Part shown: positions 536-24,156 of the stretch, piece after piece
Position numbering within the stretch: the first letter of the stretch is position 1
Layout of the letters: each line of letters begins with the position of its first letter
Origin: Sporisorium sorghi
Lineage: Eukaryota > Basidiomycota > Ustilaginomycetes > Ustilaginales > Ustilaginaceae
Reading direction: 5' to 3'
Length of the DNA: 40,061 nt
Assembly (NCBI GenBank): GCA_023212695.1
Contig: JALCCG010000183.1
Coordinates: 1 to 40,061, forward strand
The notes under the pieces: generated by a model
What the model was told of the DNA's origin: nothing
What the model saw: the letters and a program-made list of their open reading frames with translations, nothing else
Databases searched by the model: none
Translations under genes and position numbers: made by a program

Positions 536-2466
536 ATGAATGCTATCAATCTCACCAACATTCCTCGTCTTGACCTGCCGCGACTGGAAGGCCGTACGCA
601 AAGTCGCCATGTCTACCCATTCTGGGACCCAAAGCTTGAGCAAAAGTATCGCCAGCTCACCCTTCCCTCGAGCAACACCGCCACAGATGGCAAGACCGAT
701 CACCCAGCTCTGCAAAACACCTGGTTTGATGTCAAGGCCACTCATTTCGGAAGCGGTCAAGGTCGAGGAACACTGCAGCGCTGGCCATTTGCGCACACAA
801 CAACCGAGCAGGCCGAAGAGGTTCCGACAAAGGAACGCTGGACCCGGAAGACCTTGGCGATATCCTGGACGTCTTGCCCGCCGACTTTGAGCAAGGCAAG
901 CCTGCCAATGTCGATCGCGACACTGCTCTCTGCAAGCCGGAGTTCGGAGATATTCGATGCAGAAAGTTTCTGCTGTCCGATGGCCCTCAGAGTCTTCGCG
1001 AGGTGCTCTGGAGATGGTACATCGAGGGCATGGTTCCGGCAAAAAACGAGGCCATCCGGATCGTCAACGATATCACGGATGCGAAGGACAAGAAGCTGAA
1101 TGCGTGCACGCTCTATCCGGATATCTGCAACAACAATTGCACTTTCGCATCGCAGAGACAAGGTTATACGGATACCCCATGTCCCGTTCGTCGCAGCGCT
1201 GTTTTGGAGGCGGTCACGGCTCGAAAGGCCATCTTGACGGTCCATTCCAAGGCGCCATCCCAGTCACGAACCAAGCCCGCCCCCAAAATTGCTCCCGTTG
1301 TCCCCAACAAGAGCAATGGATTTGTTCTGACCTTCGCTGCTACAAATGGATACATCCATTTCCGGCAGATGCAAGCAAAGGCGGCTCGTTCAGAGTCCAC
1401 GCATGCTGCTGGCGTACCAGGCGAAGCAGCCAACTTTGATGTGCCGCAACTCCGCTCGGCGCCCATGTTGTTGGCCAAAGCCAAGGTCACGTCTACTTTG
1501 ATTGACATAGACGTACGCGGGCAGAAAGGCCGACAGTGGCTCTTCGAAGTCTGCAAGCAGGGCGCCGCCAAAGATGACGGACAAGAGGACGAGCAAGAGG
1601 ACGATCGCCATGACGAGAGTGCGACTGCTCAAGACGGTGGCACATCCAAGCTCGGAATTCCTCGCGAGTTTTCGATTCAGCTTGACAGGTACGGCAGGTA
1701 CTACCTCATCGTCAGGTACAAGGTCAAGGCACCGAAGGAAAAAGCAAAGATGCAGTTCAAGGGGAACGATCTGTTGGTAAGAGGCGGCGATCCTGGGGTC
1801 CGGACTGCGCAGACCTGGTACTCTTCCGACGGCACAGTCACCGAGTTCGGTTCGAAAAAGGATTGCGATAGGCTTGCATCGCTGCGGAAGAAGGCAGATT
1901 GCTGGAAGAGCAAGCGATTGAAAAAGAAGGAGTCAGACGGGAAGGATAGCAAGGAGGACTCGGGCGTCGACAAAGAGGCCGGCGGTGATGGAGAACCGAG
2001 CCAAGGGAAGGCTGAACAGGATATGCTGTTTGCTCTGTCGTCTGCCAAGCGACGTCAGCTGCTCAGAAAGGAGCGTCGTGCACTCAAGAAGCACGACAAT
2101 CTGGTCAAGGACGAGCACAGACGCACGGCATCCTATCTGGCTGACACGACCGACGTCCTCATTACACCAAGGATGGAGGTCCGCGGGATGGTGAAGCGGG
2201 GTAGCAAAATCAATCGCAGCGTCAAGCGGAGTCTGCTCGGCTGGGCCCACAACAAAGGCCTCGACGTACTGGCCCTTCAAGTGCATAATGCCGGCAAAGT
2301 TCTCTTGGTTCAGCCCGAGGGCTACACATCAAAGACGTGCGCAAACTGTGGCAGCCTCAACCAACAGCTGGGATCGAGCAAGACTTTCAGGTGCCCTTCC
2401 TGCACACACACAGCAGACAGGGACCACAATGCGGTGGTCAACATGATCAACAAGGCCATGCGCTAG
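536..2466 (+). CDS. Fanzor-type (eukaryotic TnpB/OrfB-like) RNA-guided DNA nuclease, reading frame interrupted near 5' end
   Basis: The C-terminal third carries the TnpB/Fanzor RuvC plus zinc-ribbon signature. The RuvC-I Asp lies in GGDPGVRTAQTWYS (Asp codon 1789-1791). The zinc ribbon has Cys codons at 2338, 2347, 2392 and 2401 (YTSKTCANCG, then FRCPSC). RuvC-III is ADRDHNAVVNM (first Asp 2416). The canonical RuvC-II Glu position in LITPRMEVRGM is not Glu (Pro, 2167). The Glu just before YTSKTC (2317) fits the rearranged active site reported for Fanzors. Upstream, PVRRSAVLEAVTARK (about 1183-1230) resembles the OrfB/Fanzor VRD-type motif. The family is known to cleave DNA guided by an RNA encoded at the gene's 3' end. 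The frame is continuous from 730 to the stop at 2466. The likely N terminus (ATG at 536, MNAINLTNIPRLDLPRLEG) is in another frame, and the join falls between about 724 and 840. No good branch point is visible there, so a frameshift is as likely as a short intron. A charged Lys/Asp/Glu linker (about 1920-2020) separates RuvC-I from RuvC-II. Activity is unproven. Confidence 0.85.
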
Positions 2467-2486: not shown

Positions 2487-2575
2487 ATTGACCCAAGTGG
2501 CGAATGTGAATATAGTCAGAGTTGAGAGCAAGCCGTGAGGGCGAAAGTGAATGCCGATCTCCCGCTCCAGACACA
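2487..2575 (+). ncRNA. candidate Fanzor guide-RNA (omega-RNA-like) scaffold / right end of element
   Basis: This 89-bp block begins 20 bp after the Fanzor stop. It recurs at 16887-16972 with about 92% identity: 4 substitutions and 3 single-base gaps, and the last 26 bases identical. No similarity extends into the Fanzor coding sequence or past CCAGACACA at 2575. A partial hairpin is shared. GGGC (2539-2542) pairs with GCTC (2564-2567) through one G-U pair where the other copy has A-U, and an inner stem is closed by TCCC. TnpB and Fanzor guide RNAs are known to come from the region just 3' of the nuclease gene and to take their guide from sequence beyond the element end. The RNA function is inferred. 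The block could instead be a dispersed repeat next to which Fanzor landed. Confidence 0.55.
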
Positions 2576-2661
2576 TGTCGGCTCGGCAATATGTCTTGCA
2601 ACAGTTGCTGGAGGCTCTGCTGAGTTGCTCGCCGCTCGCTTCTATACGCGATGGCAGACTG

Positions 2662-5895: not shown

Positions 5896-6335
5896 AGATT
5901 TTCACACAATATTGCTGTGTGCAGCCACTTTTTTAAATCTGACCATGATCACTTCAACAGAATTTTTGTTGGTGACACAAGTCTCAGTATATCCTATCCA
6001 ATGGCATAGACTTGTAGCCTGGAAACCAAAGTATGTGTACATACCCATATCAGGTATGCTTGTATTGCAGTCAGAGTCAGAAAATGTGAAGGAAGAAAAA
6101 AGTCGATTTTGGCTGACACTGTAGCAGTACATTTTTGCTTGGTCACATTTTTGGCTTCTTTGAGTTGGTGATATACTCATATGACCATAGTAGCATACTT
6201 CCAGACATAGTATCTACGTGCCTTCAAGGTTTGAGGTTGATTGGAGGACTTTGTACTAATGGTCAGGAGCCTTTGAAGTGATCATGGTCCATTTTAAAGA
6301 AGTGGCTGCACACAACTATATTGTGTTAAAATTAG
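5896..6335. mobile_element. MITE-like element with about 62-bp terminal inverted repeats
   Basis: The left arm (about 5896-5957) and the right arm (about 6274-6335) are inverted copies at roughly 80-85% identity. Shared blocks include GTGTGCAGCCACTT and CCATGATCACTTCAA. The interior of about 315 bp has no coding potential; weaker inverted similarity may continue inward. Size, structure and AT content fit a decayed miniature inverted-repeat element. I cannot identify the family, and no clean target-site duplication is visible. Confidence 0.6.
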
Positions 6336-10997: not shown

Positions 10998-12028
10998 GGT
11001 TGCAGATCGCGGTGTATGCTGGAGTGGATGGGAGCGGTGCGAGCAGATCAAGAATAGATGTGATGGCTAGAAGCGGCGATTCTCTGAAGGTTCTTATAAG
11101 GAAAGTCCCGACCTGCAGCAGCTTTCGACGCGGGACAGGCACAACACACAGAAGCACACGACATCCGGCAGATCCAGCGCGCCATGACGGGAAAGCTCTG
11201 CCCTGCGACTCGGTGCAAGCTTGCAGAGGAGGACGAGTCGATGACGGCTGTCGGCTCGTGTTGGTTGGCCAGAGCAAGGAAGGCTGACTCACACATCCAC
11301 TCACGCTTGCTAAAGATCGGCCAACACTGACTGATTCTTCCGACAAATAGCTTCAGCGCGGGGTGTGATTCAGCGAAAACGTCACTCCCGAAAATCATGC
11401 CTTCATGCGCCTGAGGAGCGTAAATGTCTGTCGCACGACTCGTCGCGCAGAAGGGGCAAATTTGATAGAGCAGCTTCGAGGGACAGGTCATGGTATTATA
11501 TCGGCCGTATGTGTCTGAAGGCCTAGCCTAGCCTCCACCGTCAACGTGCCGCCGCTGTGGAGGTGGAGAATTGGACGGAGTTTTTTTTCTTTTGCTTCAT
11601 TCGGCTCGGCAATGTGTCGAACGACATCTGCACAGGCCACGAGCAGGAAGAGACCCTTGTCTGTCGTCCGTGCGCTTTTTGCCAGCTGCAGCAATGCCGA
11701 TTGTGCTCGCGAGCCAACAAGATTCAGTCGCTTTTGACCTGCTCCTCGTATCTCCGAACAGGTGGAGGCGGAGGCAGAGAGCGAGCGTGCTTCGGGAAGC
11801 TGAGTGTGTCTGCTGCGGTCGTTCTCAGCTGGCCGTATCTCTCCACCGCTTCTGATGCAGACGGCGACAAGCAGTTCGTCTCGAATAGATAAAGCCAGCT
11901 CTCTTCTCGCATTCCATCTCCTTCCGCCCATTATTGAAGCCCAACCTCCCTTCCCCTCACACATCCACTCTTCCCATTCCACCGTACTCCGGCTCAAGCC
12001 TACTTCCATCACGCAAACAACCAAGAAA
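10998..12028. promoter_or_regulatory. shared intergenic region between two divergent ADH genes
   Basis: 1031 bp separate the two ATGs. On the left a TATAAG lies in - orientation (11093-11100). On the right GATAAAG (11888-11894) sits about 135 bp before the + gene, followed by a CT-rich leader ending in AAGAAAATG. No coding frame of interest lies between. The arrangement would allow common control of the two dehydrogenases, but no specific operator is recognisable. Confidence 0.6.
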
Positions 12029-13483: not shown

Positions 13484-15190
13484 CTAGGCAGATGTCTCGG
13501 CATGGGCGGCCTCCTTCTGAGCCTTCCAGAGAGCCACCTTCTCCTTCCTCAACTTGAGACTCTTCTTGACGTTGAAGCCGCCATCAAGAGTAGTGCGCAC
13601 CTCCTCGAGCGAGAGCAGCGAAGTCTCTGGGTAGAGGAAGTAGATGATGATGAGAAACACGGTGGTCAGGCCCGCGTAGAAGCCAAAAGCGCCCGAGGGG
13701 GTGGTGGCGTTCATGAGGCTGAGGAAGGTGGACGAGACAACGAGGTTGGCCGACCAGTTGGCTGCAGTCGAGATGGAAGTGCCGATCATGCGGGTTTCAG
13801 TCGAGTAAAACTCGCCCTGCTGCCAAGGAACATTGCCGAGACCAGTGGCGTACGCGCAGATGTAGAGGACCATGAAGACGAGCATGGCGGAAGTGTAAGA
13901 CTTGGGATAATCGTACCCCTCGACGAGGCGCTGGTTGGTGGGCTGGAGCATCTTGCCAAAGATGCCAGCGGTGCAGACAAGGAATAGGACGACGCAAGGC
14001 ATGGTCGCAAGGAGGAAGCGACGGCGGCCGAAACGATCAATGTACTTGAGCGGGATAAAGGTGCAGATGAAGTTGGCACCACTGACGATGAGACTCGTAG
14101 CTGTAGGATTGTGAATGCCCGCCTTCTGGAAGAGACTGGCACTGAAATAAATCAAGCTGTTCACGCCGCAGAGTTGCTGTGCGACGAGCGTGGTGCTGGT
14201 CAAGAAGACTGCACGTCTCGTAGGTAGGTCGGTCCAGACCTTGGCTATCCTTTGGATGAGGGGGGAATCTTCGACCTGGATGTGTTTCTGGAGGACGCCA
14301 ATCTTGGCGTTGATTTGCTCGGGAGTGGCCAGGGGATAGATGCGGGCGAGGACGCGGGTGGCTTCGTCGTCTCGTCGTTGCTTGATGAGGTAGCGTGGAG
14401 ATTCGGACATGAAGAAGTGGATGCCAAAGATCTGAACGATGGGAGGGAAGCACCCGAGGGCGATGATCCAGCGCCAGCCTGAAGAGACGTGTTGGAAGCC
14501 AGCTCCAATAGCATACGCTACCACTTGGCCACCGGTGACGGCGATGGAGTTGAGACAGGTGAGACGACCTCGAGCTCGCGCGGGGGAAAGCTCTTGCAGA
14601 TACACGGGCACGATTTGGGCAGCGGCTCCAACTCCAAAGCCCATCACAAGGCGCCCAGGGATCATGGTCCACTTCTTGTGTGCAGCAGCTTGGACGACGG
14701 CGCCGACGATGAACATGATGTCGCAGATGACCAAGGTCCACTTACGTCCGATCTTGTCGGCGACTACGCCGGCACCGAGGGCAGAGATGATGGCGCCGAC
14801 GATGAGAGCCGAGGTGATGAATTCCTTATCGCCATCGGTGAGGGGTCTGTTGTCAAGATCGTTGCCCACTTGTACTAGTGCACTGCTGATGACGCCAGTG
14901 TCGTAACCGAAGAGTAGACCGCCAATGGTAGCGAAGAAGGACAGACCCCAGAGGTAGGCGCTGTTACCTTCGCCCTGACCGGCAGCCTCGATGGCGGCTT
15001 CGTCGAGCACCTGGCTGAGTTCGGCTGCATCGATGATGCCCTCGGTAGACTCGACGGAGCGGGTAGCCAAATAAAGCTGGTTGAGTTGGTCGTGGTCGTT
15101 GGATGGCTTTAGGGAGAGCTTCTTGTCATCGGAGTCGAGGGAGTGAGGTTTCTCCTCGTCAGGAGTGAGGCTGAGGTCGCGGTCAGCCAT
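13484..15190 (-). CDS. MFS sugar transporter, myo-inositol/H+ symporter-like
   Basis: 568 residues from ATG at 15190 (MADRDLSLTPDEEKPHSLD), with about 12 predicted membrane helices. Sugar-porter hallmarks in order: GGLLFGYDTGVISSALV (first helix), DKIGRKW (loop 2-3), GRLVMGFGVG, PVYLQELSPARARGRL (helix 5-6 region), SESPRYLIKQRR, QQLCGVNSLIYFSASLFQ (helix 7), DRFGRRRFLL and PETSLLSLEEV at the end. The GYDTGVISSAL and NVPWQQGEFY motifs and the overall spacing resemble fungal Itr-type inositol transporters more than hexose carriers. The first 85 residues are an acidic cytosolic tail. It would move inositol or a related polyol across the plasma membrane with protons. Substrate choice is an inference from resemblance. 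Confidence 0.9.
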   Translation of the reverse strand: MADRDLSLTPDEEKPHSLDSDDKKLSLKPSNDHDQLNQLYLATRSVESTEGIIDAAELSQVLDEAAIEAAGQGEGNSAYLWGLSFFATIGGLLFGYDTGVISSALVQVGNDLDNRPLTDGDKEFITSALIVGAIISALGAGVVADKIGRKWTLVICDIMFIVGAVVQAAAHKKWTMIPGRLVMGFGVGAAAQIVPVYLQELSPARARGRLTCLNSIAVTGGQVVAYAIGAGFQHVSSGWRWIIALGCFPPIVQIFGIHFFMSESPRYLIKQRRDDEATRVLARIYPLATPEQINAKIGVLQKHIQVEDSPLIQRIAKVWTDLPTRRAVFLTSTTLVAQQLCGVNSLIYFSASLFQKAGIHNPTATSLIVSGANFICTFIPLKYIDRFGRRRFLLATMPCVVLFLVCTAGIFGKMLQPTNQRLVEGYDYPKSYTSAMLVFMVLYICAYATGLGNVPWQQGEFYSTETRMIGTSISTAANWSANLVVSSTFLSLMNATTPSGAFGFYAGLTTVFLIIIYFLYPETSLLSLEEVRTTLDGGFNVKKSLKLRKEKVALWKAQKEAAHAETSA

Positions 15191-16033
15191 GTCGAGTGAC
15201 GATCGATGCAAGCTGGTGTGTCGATGAATCTATGTGTGGATGTGTTGTTCAATGTTGGAGAGATGTCAAATGTTCGCAGGCGCCTTTAAATACGATGATG
15301 CTGAGCGAGGCAGAAGAGGGAGTGAAGGTGACGGTGGTGATCAGAGGAAAGGGCGAGAAGATTCCATGCGTGAAGGAGACGTGGATGAGCAAGGTGGGAT
15401 TATATGGTTGATGAAGAGCGCGAAGCTCGAAATGCACTTGCAGCAGCTCTCGCGTTTCGACGGGTTCCTTTGTGCTCAAAGACAGGGTCAGGTGGTCTCT
15501 CTCTCGCTCTCCTACAGAGAAAGGGAAGGGGCTCGGGACAACGGCACGCGGACCGGTGAAGTGTTCATGCGTGGCAGAAAGCAAGAAGCGAAAAGCGAAA
15601 AGCGAAAAGCGAGCTGAGCTTGCTGCGCTGTGCCAATGCTCTCTCGGTTTGCGCAAATTGACCGGTTCGGACGCAAAGGAGAATTCTCGGCGAAACGTGT
15701 TTTGGATTTCCGCTTGACACCTTGTGACCATTCGGGCTCAGTACAGCAGCTTTGCGACTCTGCGGAGTGTGTATGAGTGTAGTTGCTCTCGAGAAGAGAT
15801 TACTTGAGCATGGTAGTCAGCGAACGGAATGGGACACGGTCCGGTCAGAGCATGGTCGCTTAGGAGGCGGATTCTACTCGGTGCTTGGCTCGTCGAGCTC
15901 TGACCGAACTCGGACGCTTGACGGCGATCTCCTCGACACACACGTCAGCCGCGGCACTTGGCCTGCTTGCTGTCCATCGCAAGCCTTCGTTTGGCTGCAA
16001 AGAAGGATCTGCGGAAAAATTTTCAGCTTCTCG

Positions 16034-16071
<38 letters not shown>

Positions 16072-17514
16072 ACGCAGCCAAAATTCCACAAAGCAATTGT
16101 TCCGCACGAGAGTGAAAGACAAGGAGCGAGCGAGCCCGTCCAACTTCACGAACGGGCGGACGGGCGGAAGGGAGGCAGGCTTGCTGTGCAGCAACCACCA
16201 AGGACCGGTCACTTCTAAACGGGCTCATTTGACAGCGACCCCACAATCTGGTGGGTTCTAATTTACAGTACTGTACTGTACCGAGACGGCATTAGGGTCT
16301 TCTGGTACCACGAGTGCGGGGCGCACATCACTGTCAAACCCCACACTCTTCCAGGATTGTGTGGGGAAGCGGCAGATGGACGGTCGCTTCGATATTGACC
16401 GTTGCCGTGGCGAACGATGGATGCAGGCGAGGATGGTGGATTCGGGCCTTGGAGACGACACCTCTTTCGCCGAGCGGCCTCGTCGCGGCTTCTCAACCTC
16501 TCAACGCGTAGATTTTCTGCAAGATGTTTGACCGTGTGGAACACACAAAACGGGAATGCTGACGCAATCGACTTAACAGCTCTAAATTTGAATCGATCTG
16601 ATCGGCAGGCATCTTTGGGGACACCCCGATATCGACGAGCCTCTTGCCCCGCGTTGCTTTGCGGCTTTCTCTTCACATTCGGAGTCAGAACAGCAAGACT
16701 GTGCTTTCCGTCTCTGTCTCGTGCCAAGAGGGCAGCAGTCCAGAGGAAAAGTTGCGGAGATTGCTTTTTTGTTTTTCGAAACCCAGCCCAAGAGTTCCAG
16801 ACTTTGGCCAGGCAGCGAGCATCCCTTCTAGCACCTGCGCCATTCCTATCCGCCATTCTCACTCAATGTGAAGTTGGAGTCTCATCATTGATCCAAGTGG
16901 CGAATGTGAACATAGTCAGAGTTGGAGCAAGCCGTGAGAGCAAGGGAATGCCGATCTCCCGCTCCAGACACAGTCTCAGAAAATGCAATGCGGGATCCTC
17001 TCCTGCTGCAGGGTCGCATGAAGGAGACTCGCTGCGAAACGCCGTCGCCCTTTTTCCCCCCCTTTCCGCTGGGCTCAGCAGAAGGCTGCATTTTTTTTTT
17101 TTTTTTTTCGTCCCGCGTCGCTGCTCTGTTGCGCTCGCTGCACCGGCGATTCAATCTGAAATCGGCCTGCTTCCGAATCAAAGCCATCTAAGCGCATCGG
17201 GAATGGTCCGATTGTTCATCATCGTCTCGTCTCATCACGACCCATCACACTCGCATTCTCAACTCATTGTCACCATCTTTCTTTCATCACTTTTCGACAC
17301 ACAAACTTTTTCTCGCTCGCATCACCTCTCTCCTCCTCTCTGCTGCGCCGTAGACGGACAATCCGGTAGATCCCTTTTTCTTTCGACAAAGATGCAATTC
17401 ACCTTGATTCGCTAATTGAACCATTCCTAGACGCTGCGACTTTGGGTCATTCAGCACGACGCGATTCATACCCACCATCGCGACCTCTCACTTGCATTGT
17501 CTACGGCTCGCTGA
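15191..17514. other. large intergenic region between transporter and RhoGEF
   Basis: 2.3 kb without a recognised gene. Next to 15190 is the transporter promoter on the - strand. Visible items are a GCGAAAA tandem (about 15588-15611), a (TC)n microsatellite (16037-16065), a palindromic TACAGTACTGTA run (16264-16275), the solitary Fanzor 3' block (16887-16972) and an 18-nt poly(T) (17091-17108). Toward the right end a CT-rich leader precedes the RhoGEF. A branch-like CTAAT (17412) and acceptor CCTAG (ending 17430) suggest an upstream intron in that gene's leader. Confidence 0.5.
16887..16972 (+). repeat. solitary second copy of the Fanzor 3' block
   Basis: 86 bp matching 2487-2575: 82 of 89 alignment columns are identical, with the 26 bases ending in CTCCAGACACA unchanged. 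Flanks on both sides are unrelated to those of the first copy, and no Fanzor coding remnant lies next to it. This copy folds better. GAGC (16938-16941) pairs with GCTC (16961-16964), and after a 2-nt AA bulge GGGA (16944-16947) pairs with TCCC (16957-16960) around a 9-nt loop. It lies about 0.6 kb upstream of the RhoGEF open frame. It could be a guide-RNA gene acting in trans, a non-autonomous element end or a relic. Confidence 0.85.
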
Positions 17515-20500
17515 GCGAGCTACGTCGCCACGCTGTCTTCGCCTCGCTCGATACCCTCTTCTTCGCGCTCGCCGCTTCTCGAAGCTACTCCGCGCGCTCA
17601 GCGCAGCCTCTCTCCCTCGAGCATCGCCGCTTCTCCCACAAATCGCAGACCTTCCTACGGCAATCAGCTCTCGGTGCCGGGCTCGGCGCCCGGCGTCGGC
17701 GACGCTTCTTTCGATCAGGCGTCGCTGCTTAGCTCGCCCGGAGGTAGTTTGCGCCATCGTCGCGGCTCACGTTCCTCCATCCTTGCAGCTGCATCTGAAG
17801 CTGCCGGCACTGCTTCAGACAGGGAGTCGATCCGCTCGGCGGGCAGCAGCTCACGCATCGGTCCATCCACACCAAAGCAGAGGGCCAGAAGGTCGTCACG
17901 CAATGACGATCCTGAGCGAAACGCTTCGCCAGTCTCTTTCTACTCCTCATTCGAAGCGCCCTTGACATCGCCTCGTCAGTCGCGCCAGGGAAGCATGCAA
18001 TCACCCACTCACCCTGCATCAACCCACAATTCACCACCCATCGGCTCTTATCGCTCTCCAACATTCAAGCACAAGCCTCCATCCAAGGGCCAACAACAGC
18101 GGAACGACGCCACACCCACCAAGCGATCTGTATCTGCTCAGCATGAAGTCAGTCACGATGCGTCCGCCTCGTCCTCGTCCCATACCATGCGCTCCCTCTC
18201 GTCCTATTCGTGGCAGCAGCCCCACTCACCCACCCGCGACCCGCCTTCATCCCAGCGAACCGATCCAAAGGCTCAGCTTCCACACGCAGAATCAAGCAGC
18301 GTAAAGAGTGGCTCGCTTGACTCCAAGCCAAGGTCCATCTCCGCTTCAAGATCTTCCAATGTCCTGAAGCGTCCCGATGACACAACCACCACTCGACCGC
18401 GCTCAAAGAGTAGCACCAGCTCCTCTAAGCCAACCAAATCCCAGCCCTCTGTCGGTGCGCAATCCTCGTCTTCCGGCGGAGCGCAACCAAAAGATACGCC
18501 GGCGTCATCCGCTCCATCCGCAAAGACTCTCGCACCAGTGCCGTCCAAGCTCAGTCTGCGTTCCCGCATCTTTGGCGGCCTCAAACCCAGCTCGGCATCG
18601 CCAACTGCATCCTCGTTTGGTTCAGGCACCGAGACGCCATCGCCTAGATCCCTACACTTCTCGCCTTCCATCCATTCAGAAGGCTCGCACAGCGACCACA
18701 ACCCTCGAGACAACAGCGACAGCCCGCTTCTCGACCCAGCCAAAGCTTCGTCGCACTACTCAGAGTCTCTACAAGCACACGGTCCCGGCGATGACGATGA
18801 CTCGGGCGATCCCGCAAACGCAGATTCGAACGTGAACGCCGCCAGCTCTCGCAAGTCCAGTGGTGCCTCTAGCTTCCTGCGCAAGACAATGCGCTTCAAG
18901 GAAAAGCCTGCCTTCCTCAAGCCTCGTCCGTCGGTATCATCCATGACTTCGGATTCAGCCGCATCTACTTCCACCTCGGTGCCTCCTTCGCCCCTGGATC
19001 CCCCCGTCAACTCCGACGCCGAGGACGCTGCCAGAAATCCTCCCATCTACAAGCAAGTCAGCGGTCGCAGAGGGCTTCAATATCGACAACCAGTCTCGGA
19101 CCAGATGTCCAGTGCAGACGTCGCCTCCTCCAAGCCTGGCTCGCTTTCCCTAGTGACCGAAGGCGAACAAGTGCAGAACGCCATCGCTCTATTGCCTGCG
19201 GTGACAGAACGCGACTTGGAGGGCTCACCTCAGCTACATCGCTCCCTCTCGTACAAAGCCCGTGCTATGGCGGATCGTCAAGACGCCAGCTCGCCTACAG
19301 TCAAGTCGCGCTCCAGCGAGTCGGGTGCGACGTTGCAGCAAACGGTAGCCTCTCCCCTCGAAGCTGGCGCCCGATCTCGCATTCCTAGGAGCAGCAGCCT
19401 TCATGGCCACGTCGGTCGCAACAGTCCATCCACCACATCTCCTTCGCAGATCCGCTCGGAGCAAGTTGCAGCGTCACCTTTTGCCAGCATAGACGTGCCT
19501 GCATCGTCACGACGAAGGCCTCGCTCGGGATCCGACCACATGTTTGCGCCGCAGATACAGCCGCGTACGACAAGCTCGCCCCTCCAAAGCTCGTCTCGCC
19601 GTCCAGTCACAGCGCAAGGCAGTCCCTCGCTCGCCGCATCGCCTTCCGTAGGCGCTTCATCCATCAGTCGTCCGACACAGCGAGCCAGCCGACCCAAAAC
19701 GGCCGACAGTGGTCATGCTTATTCAGGCTCCCTCTCCAGCCTGCGTGATATTCTCATGGTTGCCAATGCCATCTCAGAGGAAGGCGCAGTCTACCACACA
19801 CCCGAAAAGGCGCAGATCGCGCGCTTCGAGTCCAGCGCCAGCCCGTCGCCTGATTCAAAGACGGCAGCTTCTCCTGCCGAACACAGGCGTCCCGGTCTTC
19901 CACCCAAGAATCCTTTGCGCAAACAACGACCGTCTGCAGCCAGCGTCACCAGCACTCCCTCGGTGTCTGGCAACTCTCCTGCCTCTGCTCATACCACCGG
20001 CGTATTTCCCGGTCTTTCCATGGGCAAAGCAGTCGATGAGCGTCTGCTCCGCCCCGCATCGAGGGATGCTGCATCCAGGCGTCCGTTGTCAGCATCAGGC
20101 TCGACGCCGTCTCTCGCCGAATTCCAAACTCGCACATCGGACTCGGCTCAACTGTCGCCCATGGAAAGGCAGCCGAGCGGCGACTACTTCGGGTCTCGAG
20201 ATGCACCCCTCGCACACGTCCCGTCCCGCTCGCCTGGCCTGGCGCCTGTCACAAGCAGCAGCTCTTCCTCGCCTGCGCAAGCGTCCTTTGCTTCGGCACA
20301 GCAGCTCTCGCGCGCACCGTCCACCGACTCCACTGTGGGATGGGTGCCGAGGAGGCATGAGCGCTCTGCTAGTGACGCCACCAGCTCGTTCACCGACCTC
20401 AGAAATCCTCTTGGCATGGGCGCTTCCACTCCTTCTCTCCACTCAGAAACTTCTTCGGGGACCAAGAAGAAAAAGGAGGGGCCGGGCAGCAAAATCTTTT

Positions 20501-23500
20501 CCTTTGCGCGCGACATCACCCATCGGGAAGGCAGCAATGACGCAACCTCAACGCTCACGAGCTCCGGGACGTTCCGGCTTGGAAGGAGCAGCAAGTCAAA
20601 GAAGGCAGATGCTTCGACACGACCCGTCATCCGCAGACTGTACGATGGACCCTTGGAAAGCGAAATGTCTGCTTCGGCTACGAGTCATGCTTCTGCAAAT
20701 GGCCTTCACTCGCCCCTCCAATACACAAGTGGCGTCAGCCCTGGAACTTCTGTCGTCGATCTGCAAGCCGGATCGGGTGCTGCACCTCGCACTCCCGGCT
20801 CAAGCGGCCATCGCACGGGTTCAGGCAGCCTGATTCGCTCCGCGTCATCATCCGGCAGCACTGCTCGAGACATCCTCTCGCCTGCTGCCGGCCATCTCCT
20901 GACACCGCAAATCGGCAACAATGGCAACGGAGCGTTCCTCCCGCGCAGCTCCAGCTTTGCCGTTCCGGCTTGGTCCATCCCGCAAGACGACCTGTCACAG
21001 GAGCAGAAGCGGCTCGTCAAGCGATGGTTCGTTCTGCGCGAACTTCTGGAGACCGAAAGAGCCTATGCCTCTGATCTTGCTGTAGCTCGAGACATTTACC
21101 TGGCACGGGCCAAGATGAGAGCTGGCATCACGGCGCCACTGTCGCCCTTGAGCGTTCGCTCGGCAAGCATCTTTTCACAGCTTGCTTCTCCCGAGCCGTC
21201 GACGCGCAGCCGATCCTCGCAACCGCACTTGCAGCAGCGTGGAAGCGCATCCGTCGTCAGTCCTGGACCAAGTGTTCATGCTGGTAGGAGCTCTTTGCCT
21301 CAGAGGGCGCTGTTCCGCAACGCATCAGCGGACGGCACAGCCAACGCCGCCCTGGCCAGTCCGAGCTCGGTCAACCAAGCGGCGTCTTCCGCCTCGCTCA
21401 CGTCGAGTAACCCGAGCAATCGCTCTTCGGTGTTCACCGTATCTTCGCAGAGCTCGCAGACCTCCGACACGAGTCAATTTGCGCTCTCGGGCCATCCAAC
21501 GCTCGCAGGAGGATTGCCATCTCAGATCTCCATCGACGCAAAAACAATGTCGCCTGCGTCGGCACACACCCCGACTTCAGGCACGCCCACGACGTTGCCG
21601 AATCCTGGCGTCTCGCCGTTCTCGTCCATGCCCGCGACGCCGTCGATCTCCACGCCATCAGGCATCCTTTCGCATGGAATCTTTTCGCCAGGCTTTGTTG
21701 GATCGGTCGAGACGCTCCCTGCTGGATCCCCCGATGCTCCATTCAGCGCAAGCGACGTGCGCATCATCTTTGCGCAGCTCGAGACGTGTGCTGCGTTCGC
21801 CGACGAGATGGTGGTGATCCTCGAGGGCGCCGTGGGCAAGATCTGCACCGGGACGGCCGACGAAGCCTCCCAGCTGCTAGCTCAAGGCAAGGTGATCGAG
21901 GAATCAGAGACGGATCGAGTCGGACAGGCTTTCCTCAAGCTCATGCCGCGCATTGAGCAGGTCTACTCGGCGTACTGCTCGCGACACGAGGCATCCATGG
22001 CTAGGCTGCAGGAGCTGCTCAGCACGCAGCCCAAAGTCGGCGCTTTCCTCAGCGAATGCACGCAGGCTGCACGGGCGTATACGAACGCATGGGATCTGTC
22101 GTCTCTGTTGATCAAGCCGGTGCAGCGCGTGCTCAAATATCCTTTGCTGCTCTCGCAGATCCTGGCGTCCACCAGCGGCAAGCATCCAGACATGGAGAGT
22201 CTGTCGGCAGCGTCAGTGGAGATTCAGAAGGTGGCAGACAACATCAACGAGGTCAAGAAACGCAAGGATCTCGTGGATCAGATCGTCAGCGGCAAATCGA
22301 CGAAACGCAGCACGAGTCAACGCATGCAGCACGGTGCCACGAAGAAGCTCTTGCGGCGTCAGGAAAAGGTGAAGAAGCTGGTCGTCGGCCGAGCAGAGGA
22401 CGTGCTCGTCGATGACGGCCAGTACAAGGCGTTGGTCGTTCAATTCCGGCAGCTGGAGAAGGCGACGGGCTCATTTGCAAGGCGATGCACGGGCTGGTCG
22501 TCGAGCGTCAAGGATGCGCACGTAGCGCAGCTTCGTCTCCTGGACCAATGGTGCCACGCCTACGCGGTCGACGAGATCACCGCCGGTACCGAAGCGGAGA
22601 ATCGCTTGCGCGCCTTTGTTCAGCTCGTTGAAGGCACACTGCTCGGCGAATACTGGGCGCAACTGGACGTCGAGATCCGCTCGAGCCTGACACCAGCAGT
22701 GCAACGCATCACAGCACTGTTTGCCCTGCCACAGTCAGTTATTGCAAAACGCGACGATCGCGAGCCAGACTATACGCGCTATCGAGCCGAGATTGCCCGC
22801 GGCGGCTCCAAAGCGGTGGACAAGAAGCTCACCGAGAGCGCCACCGCCTTCGTGGCGCTCCACACGCAGCTGATGAATGAATTGCCGCAGTTCAACTACG
22901 GCGTGCAGACGTTGCTGGATCTGTGCATCGAGTCGCTCTCGCGCACGCAGGCCTCGTACCATCTTCGCGTCCATCGTGCTTTGATTGGCTTTTGGCAGAC
23001 TTTCGGGCCTGAGGGCAACACGGACATTGCGCACAACGCAGAGACGGACGAAAAGTCGATGCGCCACCTCAACCCGGTCAAGATGTTCTGGCCTCTGCAC
23101 AGCAACATTGCCGGGTTTGCCGAGTCGCTGGGCATCGTTGGCGGTAGCGCTGGTGGCAACGTTGGGGGCGGCAGAGGTGGTGTGGCTGCTGACGAGCGCC
23201 CTTCTCGCTCGGCGTCGCTGAGCGTGGACAGCGAGCTGCTGGCGGTGGGCAATCTGAGCCCATCAAGCACGACGCACTTTTCGCCGCTGCAGTCTTCGCG
23301 AGCGTTGCCCGATGCCGAGTTTGCATCCAGTGTGCCGGACGCTGCCAGTATCAGCCAGAAGGTCGAGGTCCTCACTGCAGCGGGATCGGAAGCGTTGCTG
23401 GACACTGTTGCGACGAGAGCCAGTCCGAGCCCTTACGCCACACCACCTTTGGGATCACATCGTAGCGCGTCCAAGTCGCCGCAGCTTCATCAGACGCCGT

Positions 23501-24156
23501 TGCTTGGATCGCCGGCTCCGATCGGGTCGGCTCCGCTCGCGGGTGGCTCTGGGCAGCAGCAACAGCAGCCGGCGCTTCGCACGACCAAGTCCGGCGGTGG
23601 CCTGATCGGGCTTCTTCGATCGGTGGGCAGCAGCTCAGCGATGGGCTCGCGCAAGAACTCGCAGTCGACCGATACCGCGCACGAGAGTTTCCTGGACGGT
23701 CTGTCCGGCTCGTCGGATCCGCCCACGCCCATCAGCAAGGACACACCGCTTGTAGGGGGAGGCGACGCTGCTGAGGCTGCTGTTGCCGCACCGCCTCCGA
23801 CGCTGCCTGCGCTCACGTTCAATTCTGGGTTCTTCGGTCAGTCGGATGCCGTGTTTGACTCGGCGTCTGCGCACGGGCTTGGTGTGGAGACTGACGAGAA
23901 CAGGTCGCCGGGTTCACAGGCGCCTGCGCAGGATGCAGCGTCGACCTCGACAAACAAGGTAATGGGCACGATGGCTGCGGTGGCCAACAGTCCCTCATCG
24001 AGGGGCGCGGCGACCAAGAACGGCTATCCGTTTGTCGAGTATGCGGTCGGGGACCTTTTCAGGGTGGCCGAGCACGACGAGGTGCATCTGTTTGGGCATT
24101 CCGAGCACGGCGTCAAAGGGTGGGTGGAGCGCGAGAACTTTGTGCCTCTGTCGTAG
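17515..24156 (+). CDS. DH-BAR Rho/Cdc42 guanine nucleotide exchange factor (Gef1/Tuba-like), start unresolved
   Basis: The open frame runs from 17515 to TAG 24156, up to 2213 residues. No ATG exists before 17995, yet 17515-17994 is clearly coding (Ser/Pro-rich, for example SLSPSSIAASPTNRRPSYG), so the true start is probably in an upstream exon. The first 1150 residues are disordered. The DH domain begins at about 21010 (WFVLRELLETERAYASDL). It is interrupted by about 200 Ser/Pro/Thr-rich residues (21127-21745) and resumes at 21752-22260 with the CR3 helix SLLIKPVQRVLKYPLLL. A BAR-like helical domain follows (about 22290-23010), then a second disordered linker and a short SH3-like end (about 24025-24150, GDLFRVAEHDEVHLFGH, GWVERENFVPLS). 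DH-BAR proteins such as fission yeast Gef1 and animal Tuba activate Cdc42 at membranes for polarity and septation. No PH domain is seen, consistent with BAR replacing it. Confidence 0.88.
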   Translation, partial: ASYVATLSSPRSIPSSSRSPLLEATPRAQRSLSPSSIAASPTNRRPSYGNQLSVPGSAPGVGDASFDQASLLSSPGGSLRHRRGSRSSILAAASEAAGTASDRESIRSAGSSSRIGPSTPKQRARRSSRNDDPERNASPVSFYSSFEAPLTSPRQSRQGSMQSPTHPASTHNSPPIGSYRSPTFKHKPPSKGQQQRNDATPTKRSVSAQHEVSHDASASSSSHTMRSLSSYSWQQPHSPTRDPPSSQRTDPKAQLPHAESSSVKSGSLDSKPRSISASRSSNVLKRPDDTTTTRPRSKSSTSSSKPTKSQPSVGAQSSSSGGAQPKDTPASSAPSAKTLAPVPSKLSLRSRIFGGLKPSSASPTASSFGSGTETPSPRSLHFSPSIHSEGSHSDHNPRDNSDSPLLDPAKASSHYSESLQAHGPGDDDDSGDPANADSNVNAASSRKSSGASSFLRKTMRFKEKPAFLKPRPSVSSMTSDSAASTSTSVPPSPLDPPVNSDAEDAARNPPIYKQVSGRRGLQYRQPVSDQMSSADVASSKPGSLSLVTEGEQVQNAIALLPAVTERDLEGSPQLHRSLSYKARAMADRQDASSPTVKSRSSESGATLQQTVASPLEAGARSRIPRSSSLHGHVGRNSPSTTSPSQIRSEQVAASPFASIDVPASSRRRPRSGSDHMFAPQIQPRTTSSPLQSSSRRPVTAQGSPSLAASPSVGASSISRPTQRASRPKTADSGHAYSGSLSSLRDILMVANAISEEGAVYHTPEKAQIARFESSASPSPDSKTAASPAEHRRPGLPPKNPLRKQRPSAASVTSTPSVSGNSPASAHTTGVFPGLSMGKAVDERLLRPASRDAASRRPLSASGSTPSLAEFQTRTSDSAQLSPMERQPSGDYFGSRDAPLAHVPSRSPGLAPVTSSSSSSPAQASFASAQQLSRAPSTDSTVGWVPRRHERSASDATSSFTDLRNPLGMGASTPSLHSETSSGTKKKKEGPGSKIFSFARDITHREGSNDATSTLTSSGTFRLGRSSKSKKADASTRPVIRRLYDGPLESEMSASATSHASANGLHSPLQYTSGVSPGTSVVDLQAGSGAAPRTPGSSGHRTGSGSLIRSASSSGSTARDILSPAAGHLLTPQIGNNGNGAFLPRSSSFAVPAWSIPQDDLSQEQKRLVKRWFVLRELLETERAYASDLAVARDIYLARAKMRAGITAPLSPLSVRSASIFSQLASPEPSTRSRSSQPHLQQRGSASVVSPGPSVHAGRSSLPQRALFRNASADGTANAALASPSSVNQAASSASLTSSNPSNRSSVFTVSSQSSQTSDTSQFALSGHPTLAGGLPSQISIDAKTMSPASAHTPTSGTPTTLPNPGVSPFSSMPATPSISTPSGILSHGIFSPGFVGSVETLPAGSPDAPFSASDVRIIFAQLETCAAFADEMVVILEGAVGKICTGTADEASQLLAQGKVIEESETDRVGQAFLKLMPRIEQVYSAYCSRHEASMARLQELLSTQPKVGAFLSECTQAARAYTNAWDLSSLLIKPVQRVLKYPLLLSQILASTSGKHPDMESLSAASVEIQKVADNINEVKKRKDLVDQIVSGKSTKRSTSQRMQHGATKKLLRRQEKVKKLVVGRAEDVLVDDGQYKALVVQFRQLEKATGSFARRCTGWSSSVKDAHVAQLRLLDQWCHAYAVDEITAGTEAENRLRAFVQLVEGTLLGEYWAQLDVEIRSSLTPAVQRITALFALPQSVIAKRDDREPDYTRYRAEIARGGSKAVDKKLTESATAFVALHTQLMNELPQFNYGVQTLLDLCIESLSRTQASYHLRVHRALIGFWQTFGPEGNTDIAHNAETDEKSMRHLNPVKMFWPLHSNIAGFAESLGIVGGSAGGNVGGGRGGVAADERPSRSASLSVDSELLAVGNLSPSSTTHFSPLQSSRALPDAEFASSVPDAASISQKVEVLTAAGSEALLDTVATRASPSPYATPPLGSHRSASKSPQLHQTPLLGSPAPIGSAPLAGGSGQQQQQPALRTTKSGGGLIGLLRSVGSSSAMGSRKNSQSTDTAHESFLDGLSGSSDPPTPISKDTPLVGGGDAAEAAVAAPPPTLPALTFNSGFFGQSDAVFDSASAHGLGVETDENRSPGSQAPAQDAASTSTNKVMGTMAAVANSPSSRGAATKNGYPFVEYAVGDLFRVAEHDEVHLFGHSEHGVKGWVERENFVPLS

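What the first reader, a model, noticed from the sequence alone, without database searches (positions are those of the whole stretch)
16887..16972. Orphan copy of the Fanzor 3' block upstream of a RhoGEF gene
The same block, 92% identical, stands alone 14.4 kb away with unrelated flanks and no nuclease remnant. It keeps a better hairpin than the linked copy. It may be a guide RNA working in trans with the Fanzor at 536-2466, a non-autonomous element mobilised by the same machinery, or a domesticated regulatory element in the RhoGEF promoter region.
Basis: partly seen in the sequence, partly recalled or inferred. Interest (0 to 1): 0.88.

Follow-up and report, generated by a model that had tools for sequence, protein, structure and literature searches.

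The report
Solo Fanzor guide-RNA scaffold copy
A smut-fungus genome carries, in front of a signalling gene, a stray copy of the short stretch that sits just behind a Fanzor RNA-guided nuclease gene and probably makes its guide RNA; such 'ghost' guide copies are already known in another fungus, so this is a further, smaller version of a known thing.

Summary
Window 16887-16972 is a 92%-identical copy of 2487-2575, a block that starts 20 nt after the stop codon of a Fanzor gene. A search of the 23.2-Mb assembly finds only these two places. Flanks are unrelated and no nuclease remnant was found nearby. SINE-like and host-gene-family explanations fail.

The same thing occurs in a second Fanzor lineage here: 81 bp that start 12 nt after the stop of the C222 Fanzor stand alone, 98% identical, on contig C172. 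A third case is weak. Five of eight lineages tested show no solo.

Position and length resemble the 75-nt omegaRNA scaffold of Spizellomyces Fanzor; that fungus has 134 Fanzor-less 'ghost' loci, and scaffolds from four of them work (PMC10432273). Best reading: a one-sided ghost, a solo right end/omegaRNA scaffold spread by the element, now most likely a relic. Use as a trans guide is possible, not shown.

The better hairpin is real but not beyond chance, the target-site duplication is only suggestive, and the linked Fanzor frame is broken in this assembly. Identification of the block as omegaRNA rests on position, not on RNA data.

The parts
16887..16972 (+). Orphan (solo) copy of the Fanzor 3' block; probable omegaRNA scaffold / right end without Fanzor gene
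   Evidence: 82 of 89 columns identical to 2487-2575; only two places in the assembly; no Fanzor remnant in 14000-17600
2487..2575 (+). Linked copy of the block, starting 20 nt after the Fanzor stop codon; probable omegaRNA scaffold / right end
   Evidence: omegaRNA identity inferred from position by analogy with PMC10432273 section 7
536..2466 (+). Fanzor gene; N-terminal part and the open C-terminal 530 codons (874-2463) lie in different frames
   Evidence: PF07282 E = 4.9e-14; 9b0l L79 match E = 8.5e-13; D306, E435, D515 and four zinc-ribbon cysteines present; frames
16938..16964 (+). 3' hairpin of the orphan block (8 pairs, 2-nt bulge)
   Evidence: not more stable than shuffles
16878..16884 (+). 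Left copy of possible 7-bp target-site duplication AGTCTCA
   Evidence: 146 and 186 of 20000 random intervals have one as good
16972..16978 (+). Right copy of possible target-site duplication AGTCTCA (first base shared with the block end)
16973..16990 (+). Sequence that would be the start of the orphan's guide, if the block is an omegaRNA scaffold
   Evidence: differs from 2576-2593; unique in the assembly at up to 2 mismatches
2576..2593 (+). Sequence that would be the start of the linked copy's guide
   Evidence: unique in the assembly at up to 2 mismatches
17674..24156 (+). Open frame of the RhoGEF gene downstream of the orphan (not part of the element)

Best explanation
The orphan is a solo copy of the right end of a Fanzor element, and that right end is most likely the DNA for the nuclease's omegaRNA scaffold. 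Shown: it is a copy of the block that starts 20 nt after a Fanzor stop codon; no nuclease remnant and no convincing left end were found; the sequence directly 3', where a guide would be, differs from that of the linked copy; a second Fanzor lineage of this genome has an equivalent 81-bp solo on another contig. Inferred: the linked block is transcribed as scaffold plus guide, as in Spizellomyces; the solo arose when the right end alone was copied, or was kept while the rest of an inserted element was lost; today it is most likely a relic that could at best supply a guide in trans while a related Fanzor is expressed.
For: Two copies only, one directly behind a Fanzor gene. C222 Fanzor block (starts 12 nt after its stop) stands alone on C172, 81 bp, 98%, with no Fanzor remnant at E <= 1 in the 10 kb around; weaker third case, 53 bp at 82%. 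Block lengths 81-89 bp and place after the stop agree with the 75-nt Spizellomyces scaffold between stop codon and right inverted repeat. Ghost loci without the gene exist there, and four ghost scaffolds work. 5'-truncated, 3'-intact Fanzor copies with 7-19-bp duplications are published for Chlamydomonas.
Against: No RNA data. Folding of the blocks is no better than shuffles; no Rfam match in the window; no significant similarity of the block to the 3' flanks of eight other Fanzor loci and no shared k-mer beyond shuffles. Five of eight lineages have no solo. The C172 solo has no duplication of 5 bp or more at its edges. The left end of the linked element was not found, so one-sidedness rests on missing similarity; two short matches between the orphan's flanks and 337-358 (2 and 5 of 200 shuffles) are unexplained.
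Confidence: 0.65

Rival explanations
1. Active trans-acting guide locus: the orphan is transcribed, its RNA loads a Fanzor encoded elsewhere in the genome and directs it to sequence matching 16973 onward.
For: Spizellomyces ghost scaffolds work with SpuFz1, and the authors suggest trans use of ghost guides. The assembly has other Fanzor genes, e.g. C222 with a 672-codon open frame. The orphan hairpin is the more stable of the two.
Against: No expression data; the would-be guide has no other match in the assembly at up to 2 mismatches; hairpin gain is within random expectation; the closest other Fanzor is 65% identical, so sharing of scaffolds is unproven.
Confidence: 0.12
2. Accidental fragment: the block was copied once by break repair or local duplication, or is what a deletion left of a full Fanzor insertion; the omegaRNA nature of the block plays no part.
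For: Both copies lie on one contig, 14.4 kb apart; other truncated Fanzor pieces exist in the assembly.
Against: A second lineage has a solo of nearly the same extent on a different contig from its Fanzor; two such edges just after a stop codon are not expected from random breakage, though two cases are few.
Confidence: 0.2
3. Domesticated regulatory element of the RhoGEF promoter region.
For: Lies 702 bp before the open RhoGEF frame.
Against: I found no evidence for it; no sister genome was at hand to test conservation.
Confidence: 0.02
4. Ordinary SINE-like repeat or host gene family.
For: None found.
Against: Only two places in the assembly. The 20-nt core at up to 3 mismatches adds 7 places against 1 in the reversed control; flanks of 6 of these 7 were viewed and I saw no convincing extension (best local score 18, not set against a control). 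On the + strand all 3 frames of the linked block and 2 of 3 of the orphan hold stops.
Confidence: 0.01

Closest known systems
Ghost Spu-1 elements (stand-alone omegaRNA loci) of Spizellomyces punctatus, PMC10432273 (section 7 read in full; passages)
   Same: Copy of the block between Fanzor stop codon and right end, without the Fanzor gene; variable sequence follows it; similar length (75 nt there, 81-89 bp here).
   Different: Spu ghosts are about 550 nt with inverted repeats at both ends, 134 copies, and tested scaffolds; here about 80-90 bp, one solo per lineage, no left end found, no RNA data.
5'-truncated, 3'-intact Fanzor1 copies CRe-1/2/3 of Chlamydomonas reinhardtii, PMC3627910 (section 8 read in full; passages)
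   Same: One-ended copies that keep the 3' end; a 7-bp flanking repeat here fits their 7-19-bp range.
   Different: Those are multi-copy Helitron relatives with variable truncation; here two clear solos, both starting just after the stop codon; the duplication here is weak, absent at C172, and no Helitron hallmark was tested.
Miniature derivatives of IS200/IS605 elements (recalled, not looked up)
   Same: Gene-less element made of end sequence.
   Different: Those keep both end hairpins; only a right end is seen here.

Membership tests
Fanzor ghost (stand-alone omegaRNA) locus | Copy of the region between Fanzor stop codon and right end, with no Fanzor ORF | tested here: met
Fanzor ghost (stand-alone omegaRNA) locus | Inverted repeats / left end on both sides | tested here: inconclusive
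   No convincing left end beside the orphan or C172 solo; left end of the linked element itself not found
Fanzor ghost (stand-alone omegaRNA) locus | Variable flanking sequence in the guide position | tested here: met
   2576-2593 and 16973-16990 differ; each unique in the assembly
Fanzor ghost (stand-alone omegaRNA) locus | Scaffold RNA is made and binds a Fanzor | not testable with these tools
   no RNA data
Fanzor ghost (stand-alone omegaRNA) locus | Structured scaffold | tested here: inconclusive
   folds not better than shuffles
One-ended Fanzor Helitron copy (CRe-like) | 3' end intact, 5' truncated, flanked by target-site duplication | tested here: inconclusive
   3' end kept; 7-bp repeat at the orphan with chance 0.7-0.9%; none at the C172 solo
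One-ended Fanzor Helitron copy (CRe-like) | Ends shared with a verified Helitron | not tested
   no genome search for Helitrons was made
Fanzor nuclease (linked gene) | C-terminal TnpB/Fanzor domain with catalytic residues and zinc ribbon | tested here: met
   PF07282, 9b0l L79, D306/E435/D515 chosen by motif and four cysteines. Model weak, mean pLDDT 65.9. Fanzor1 versus Fanzor2 not decided.
SINE-like repeat | Many dispersed copies | tested here: not met
   two places

The most novel reading that the evidence does not exclude
In smuts the omegaRNA scaffold itself is the mobile unit. Solos of about 80-90 bp, starting just after the stop-codon side of a Fanzor gene and ending at the scaffold/guide border, seed themselves at new sites, where the adjacent host DNA becomes a new guide. 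Fanzors elsewhere in the genome would use this scattered repertoire in trans: a minimal, one-ended ghost locus that creates guides by landing.
Probability: 0.1. Interest if true: 0.85.

Novelty: new variant of a known kind. Interest (0 to 1): 0.45.

Why it matters
If the solos are transcribed, smut fungi would offer a setting outside chytrids in which Fanzor nucleases can draw on guide RNAs encoded away from their own gene, and the low copy number (one solo per lineage found) would make insertion, loss and function of each one testable with sister strains. If they are relics, they still mark where Fanzor elements have been and help delimit the scaffold: two lineages give 81- to 89-bp blocks starting 12 and 20 nt after the stop codon.

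Tried and rejected
SINE-like repeat and host gene family: rejected. Coding function: on the + strand no frame is open in both copies; two minus frames are open in both, but over fewer than 30 codons. Special RNA folding: not beyond shuffles on either strand for the whole blocks or for the 3' hairpin (+ strand); hairpin gain within random change. Similarity of the block to the 3' flanks of eight other Fanzor loci: best rows 18, 23 and 29 of 300 shuffles among 16 comparisons, not significant (that script then stopped with an error before its terminal-repeat test, which was done in other forms). Left-end candidate: 339-357 resembles the 3' hairpin in direct orientation, but 21 and 29 of 500 shuffles do as well and 49 of 184 control pieces score as high, so dropped; a gapped inverted match of 179-240 to the orphan block (score 16, 18 of 500 shuffles, above all 184 control pieces) is not shown by the linked block (score 11, 400 of 500) and was dropped too. 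Two short matches of the orphan's flanks (16853-16865 inverted; 16999-17008 direct) to 337-358 (2 and 5 of 200 shuffles, 7 comparisons) remain unexplained. Sequence after the linked block matching 11601-11618 (17 of 18, E = 0.008 in the window) is left as chance. Motif RNGAAYGC in 4 of 8 Fanzor 3' flanks (0.43 expected) is post hoc; an unbiased k-mer count gave no excess (5; shuffles gave 5 or more in 57 of 60). Pol III boxes: an A-box match in both copies, but such matches are common (14.6 per kb at up to 1 mismatch), and no B-box match in the block. Viral contigs: no match for two block patterns and no Fanzor relative. Rfam: none in the window. Papers: Fanzor with Ustilago 2, with smut 3, none about smut Fanzors by title; Fanzor with ghost 1, which is PMC10432273 (listings only). 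Fold search for the weak Fanzor model could not be run.

Full report
What is there. The window is contig C97 of a 23.17-Mb, 469-contig assembly. Its mitochondrial carrier is closest among named matches to Sporisorium graminicola (85% over 89% of the query) and then to other smuts (120 of 457 hits listed), so the host is a smut or smut-like yeast; the species is not known. Positions 16887-16972 align with 2487-2575 over 89 columns, 82 identical, 4 substitutions, 3 gap columns. A search of the whole assembly with 16880-16980 gives these two places and no third (the tool warns that counts are lower bounds). Allowing 3 mismatches in the 20-nt core adds 7 places against 1 in the reversed control; I looked at the flanks of 6 of the 7 and saw no convincing extension. 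Similarity begins and ends abruptly. No Fanzor remnant at E <= 1 lies in 14000-17600.

The linked copy. The block follows the stop codon of a Fanzor gene by 20 nt. The C-terminal 530 codons (874-2463) are open, carry PF07282, match the chain 'TnpB-like protein L79' of 9b0l (E = 8.5e-13), and keep three acidic residues in RuvC-like motifs and four zinc-ribbon cysteines (motifs chosen by eye). The N-terminal part lies in another frame; by eye it matches the N terminus of homologue P0002. So the gene is broken or misassembled here. The protein search gave 14 homologues, those from named fungi being of Ustilago bromivora and Sporisorium scitamineum.

The phenomenon recurs. The protein search finds 13 Fanzor-like matches in the assembly, several of them pieces of one gene. 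I searched the assembly with 3' flanks of eight lineages: window, C222, C424, C69/C288, C456, C192, C169, C468; the C379 and C88 matches were not tested, and C88 looks bacterial. The C222 Fanzor has a 672-codon open frame reaching the C terminus. Its block begins 12 nt after the stop codon and stands alone at C172:18045-18125, 81 bp, 98% identical, with sharp edges and no Fanzor hit in the 10 kb fetched around it. The C424 flank has a 53-bp, 82% match at C222:87677-87729, weaker and starting far from the stop. C69/C288, C456, C192, C169 and C468 have none. So solos are clear in 2 of 8 lineages and possible in 3 of 8.

What it probably is. In Spizellomyces a 75-nt scaffold lies between the Fanzor stop codon and the right inverted repeat, is transcribed with 14-15 nt of flanking DNA as guide, and 134 ghost loci carry it without the gene (PMC10432273, section 7 read in full). 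Scaffolds of four ghost loci gave indel rates comparable to improved canonical ones, and the authors suggest that ghost guides may serve Fanzors in trans (passages). Position, length and differing 3' neighbour agree with this layout in both smut lineages. I therefore read the block as omegaRNA scaffold/right end and the orphan as a ghost-like solo. This rests on position: folding is no better than shuffles, Rfam is silent for the window, and similarity between lineages is not significant, apart from a post hoc motif in 4 of 8 flanks.

How it got there. No convincing left end was found beside the orphan or the C172 solo, and the left end of the linked element is itself unknown, so 'one-sided' rests on missing similarity. 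Two short matches between the orphan's flanks and 337-358 (2 and 5 of 200 shuffles) are unexplained. Bao and Jurka describe 3'-intact, 5'-truncated Fanzor copies with 7-19-bp duplications (PMC3627910, section 8 read in full). A 7-bp repeat AGTCTCA flanks the orphan, but 146 and 186 of 20000 random intervals have one as good, and the C172 solo has none of 5 bp or more. One-ended transposition, internal deletion of a full insertion, and break repair with a copied snippet all remain possible. Two clear solos that start 12 and 20 nt after a stop codon speak for a defined unit, but two cases are few.

Does it work? Untested. The would-be guides 16973-16990 and 2576-2593 have no other match in the assembly at up to 2 mismatches. 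The orphan hairpin is stronger than the linked one (-9.2 against -6.1 kcal/mol), but 32 of 200 shuffles equal it, and 927 of 4000 random changes reach it. Spizellomyces ghosts also differ from canonical scaffolds in one stem (passage), so the parallel is suggestive only.

Verdict. It is a smaller, apparently one-sided version of a known kind, the ghost Fanzor guide locus, seen here in a smut in two lineages. Most probably a relic; a trans guide is possible.

Noticed in passing
window 5898-5957 and 6273-6332: 60-bp inverted repeat, 88% complementary, 315 bp between the arms: looks like a small terminal-inverted-repeat element of about 435 bp.
   Followed up: partly
window 2578-2595 and 11601-11618: 17 of 18 bases directly after the linked block (its would-be guide) recur near an alcohol-dehydrogenase-like gene; E = 0.008 within the window, probably chance.
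   Followed up: partly
L023 (minus strand) and L024, contigs C69 and C288: Two Fanzor elements 88% identical over about 2.2 kb, with a shared palindromic left border and a shared 3' region ending about 26 bp after a TCTCG..CGAGA hairpin: a chance to define element ends in this genome.
   Followed up: partly
L019 1-167 and L020 2255-2421, contig C424: The first 167 bp of the contig, inside a Fanzor gene, recur 100% identically about 11 kb further on: a second partial copy or an assembly artefact.
   Followed up: no
L029, contig C88: TnpB-like match whose 3' flank looks like a bacterial IS200/IS605 right end (recalled likeness); the assembly probably holds some bacterial contigs.
   Followed up: no
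L043, C222:87677-87729: 53-bp piece, 82% like the C424 Fanzor 3' region, about 2.2 kb upstream of the C222 Fanzor match: a possible third solo.
   Followed up: partly
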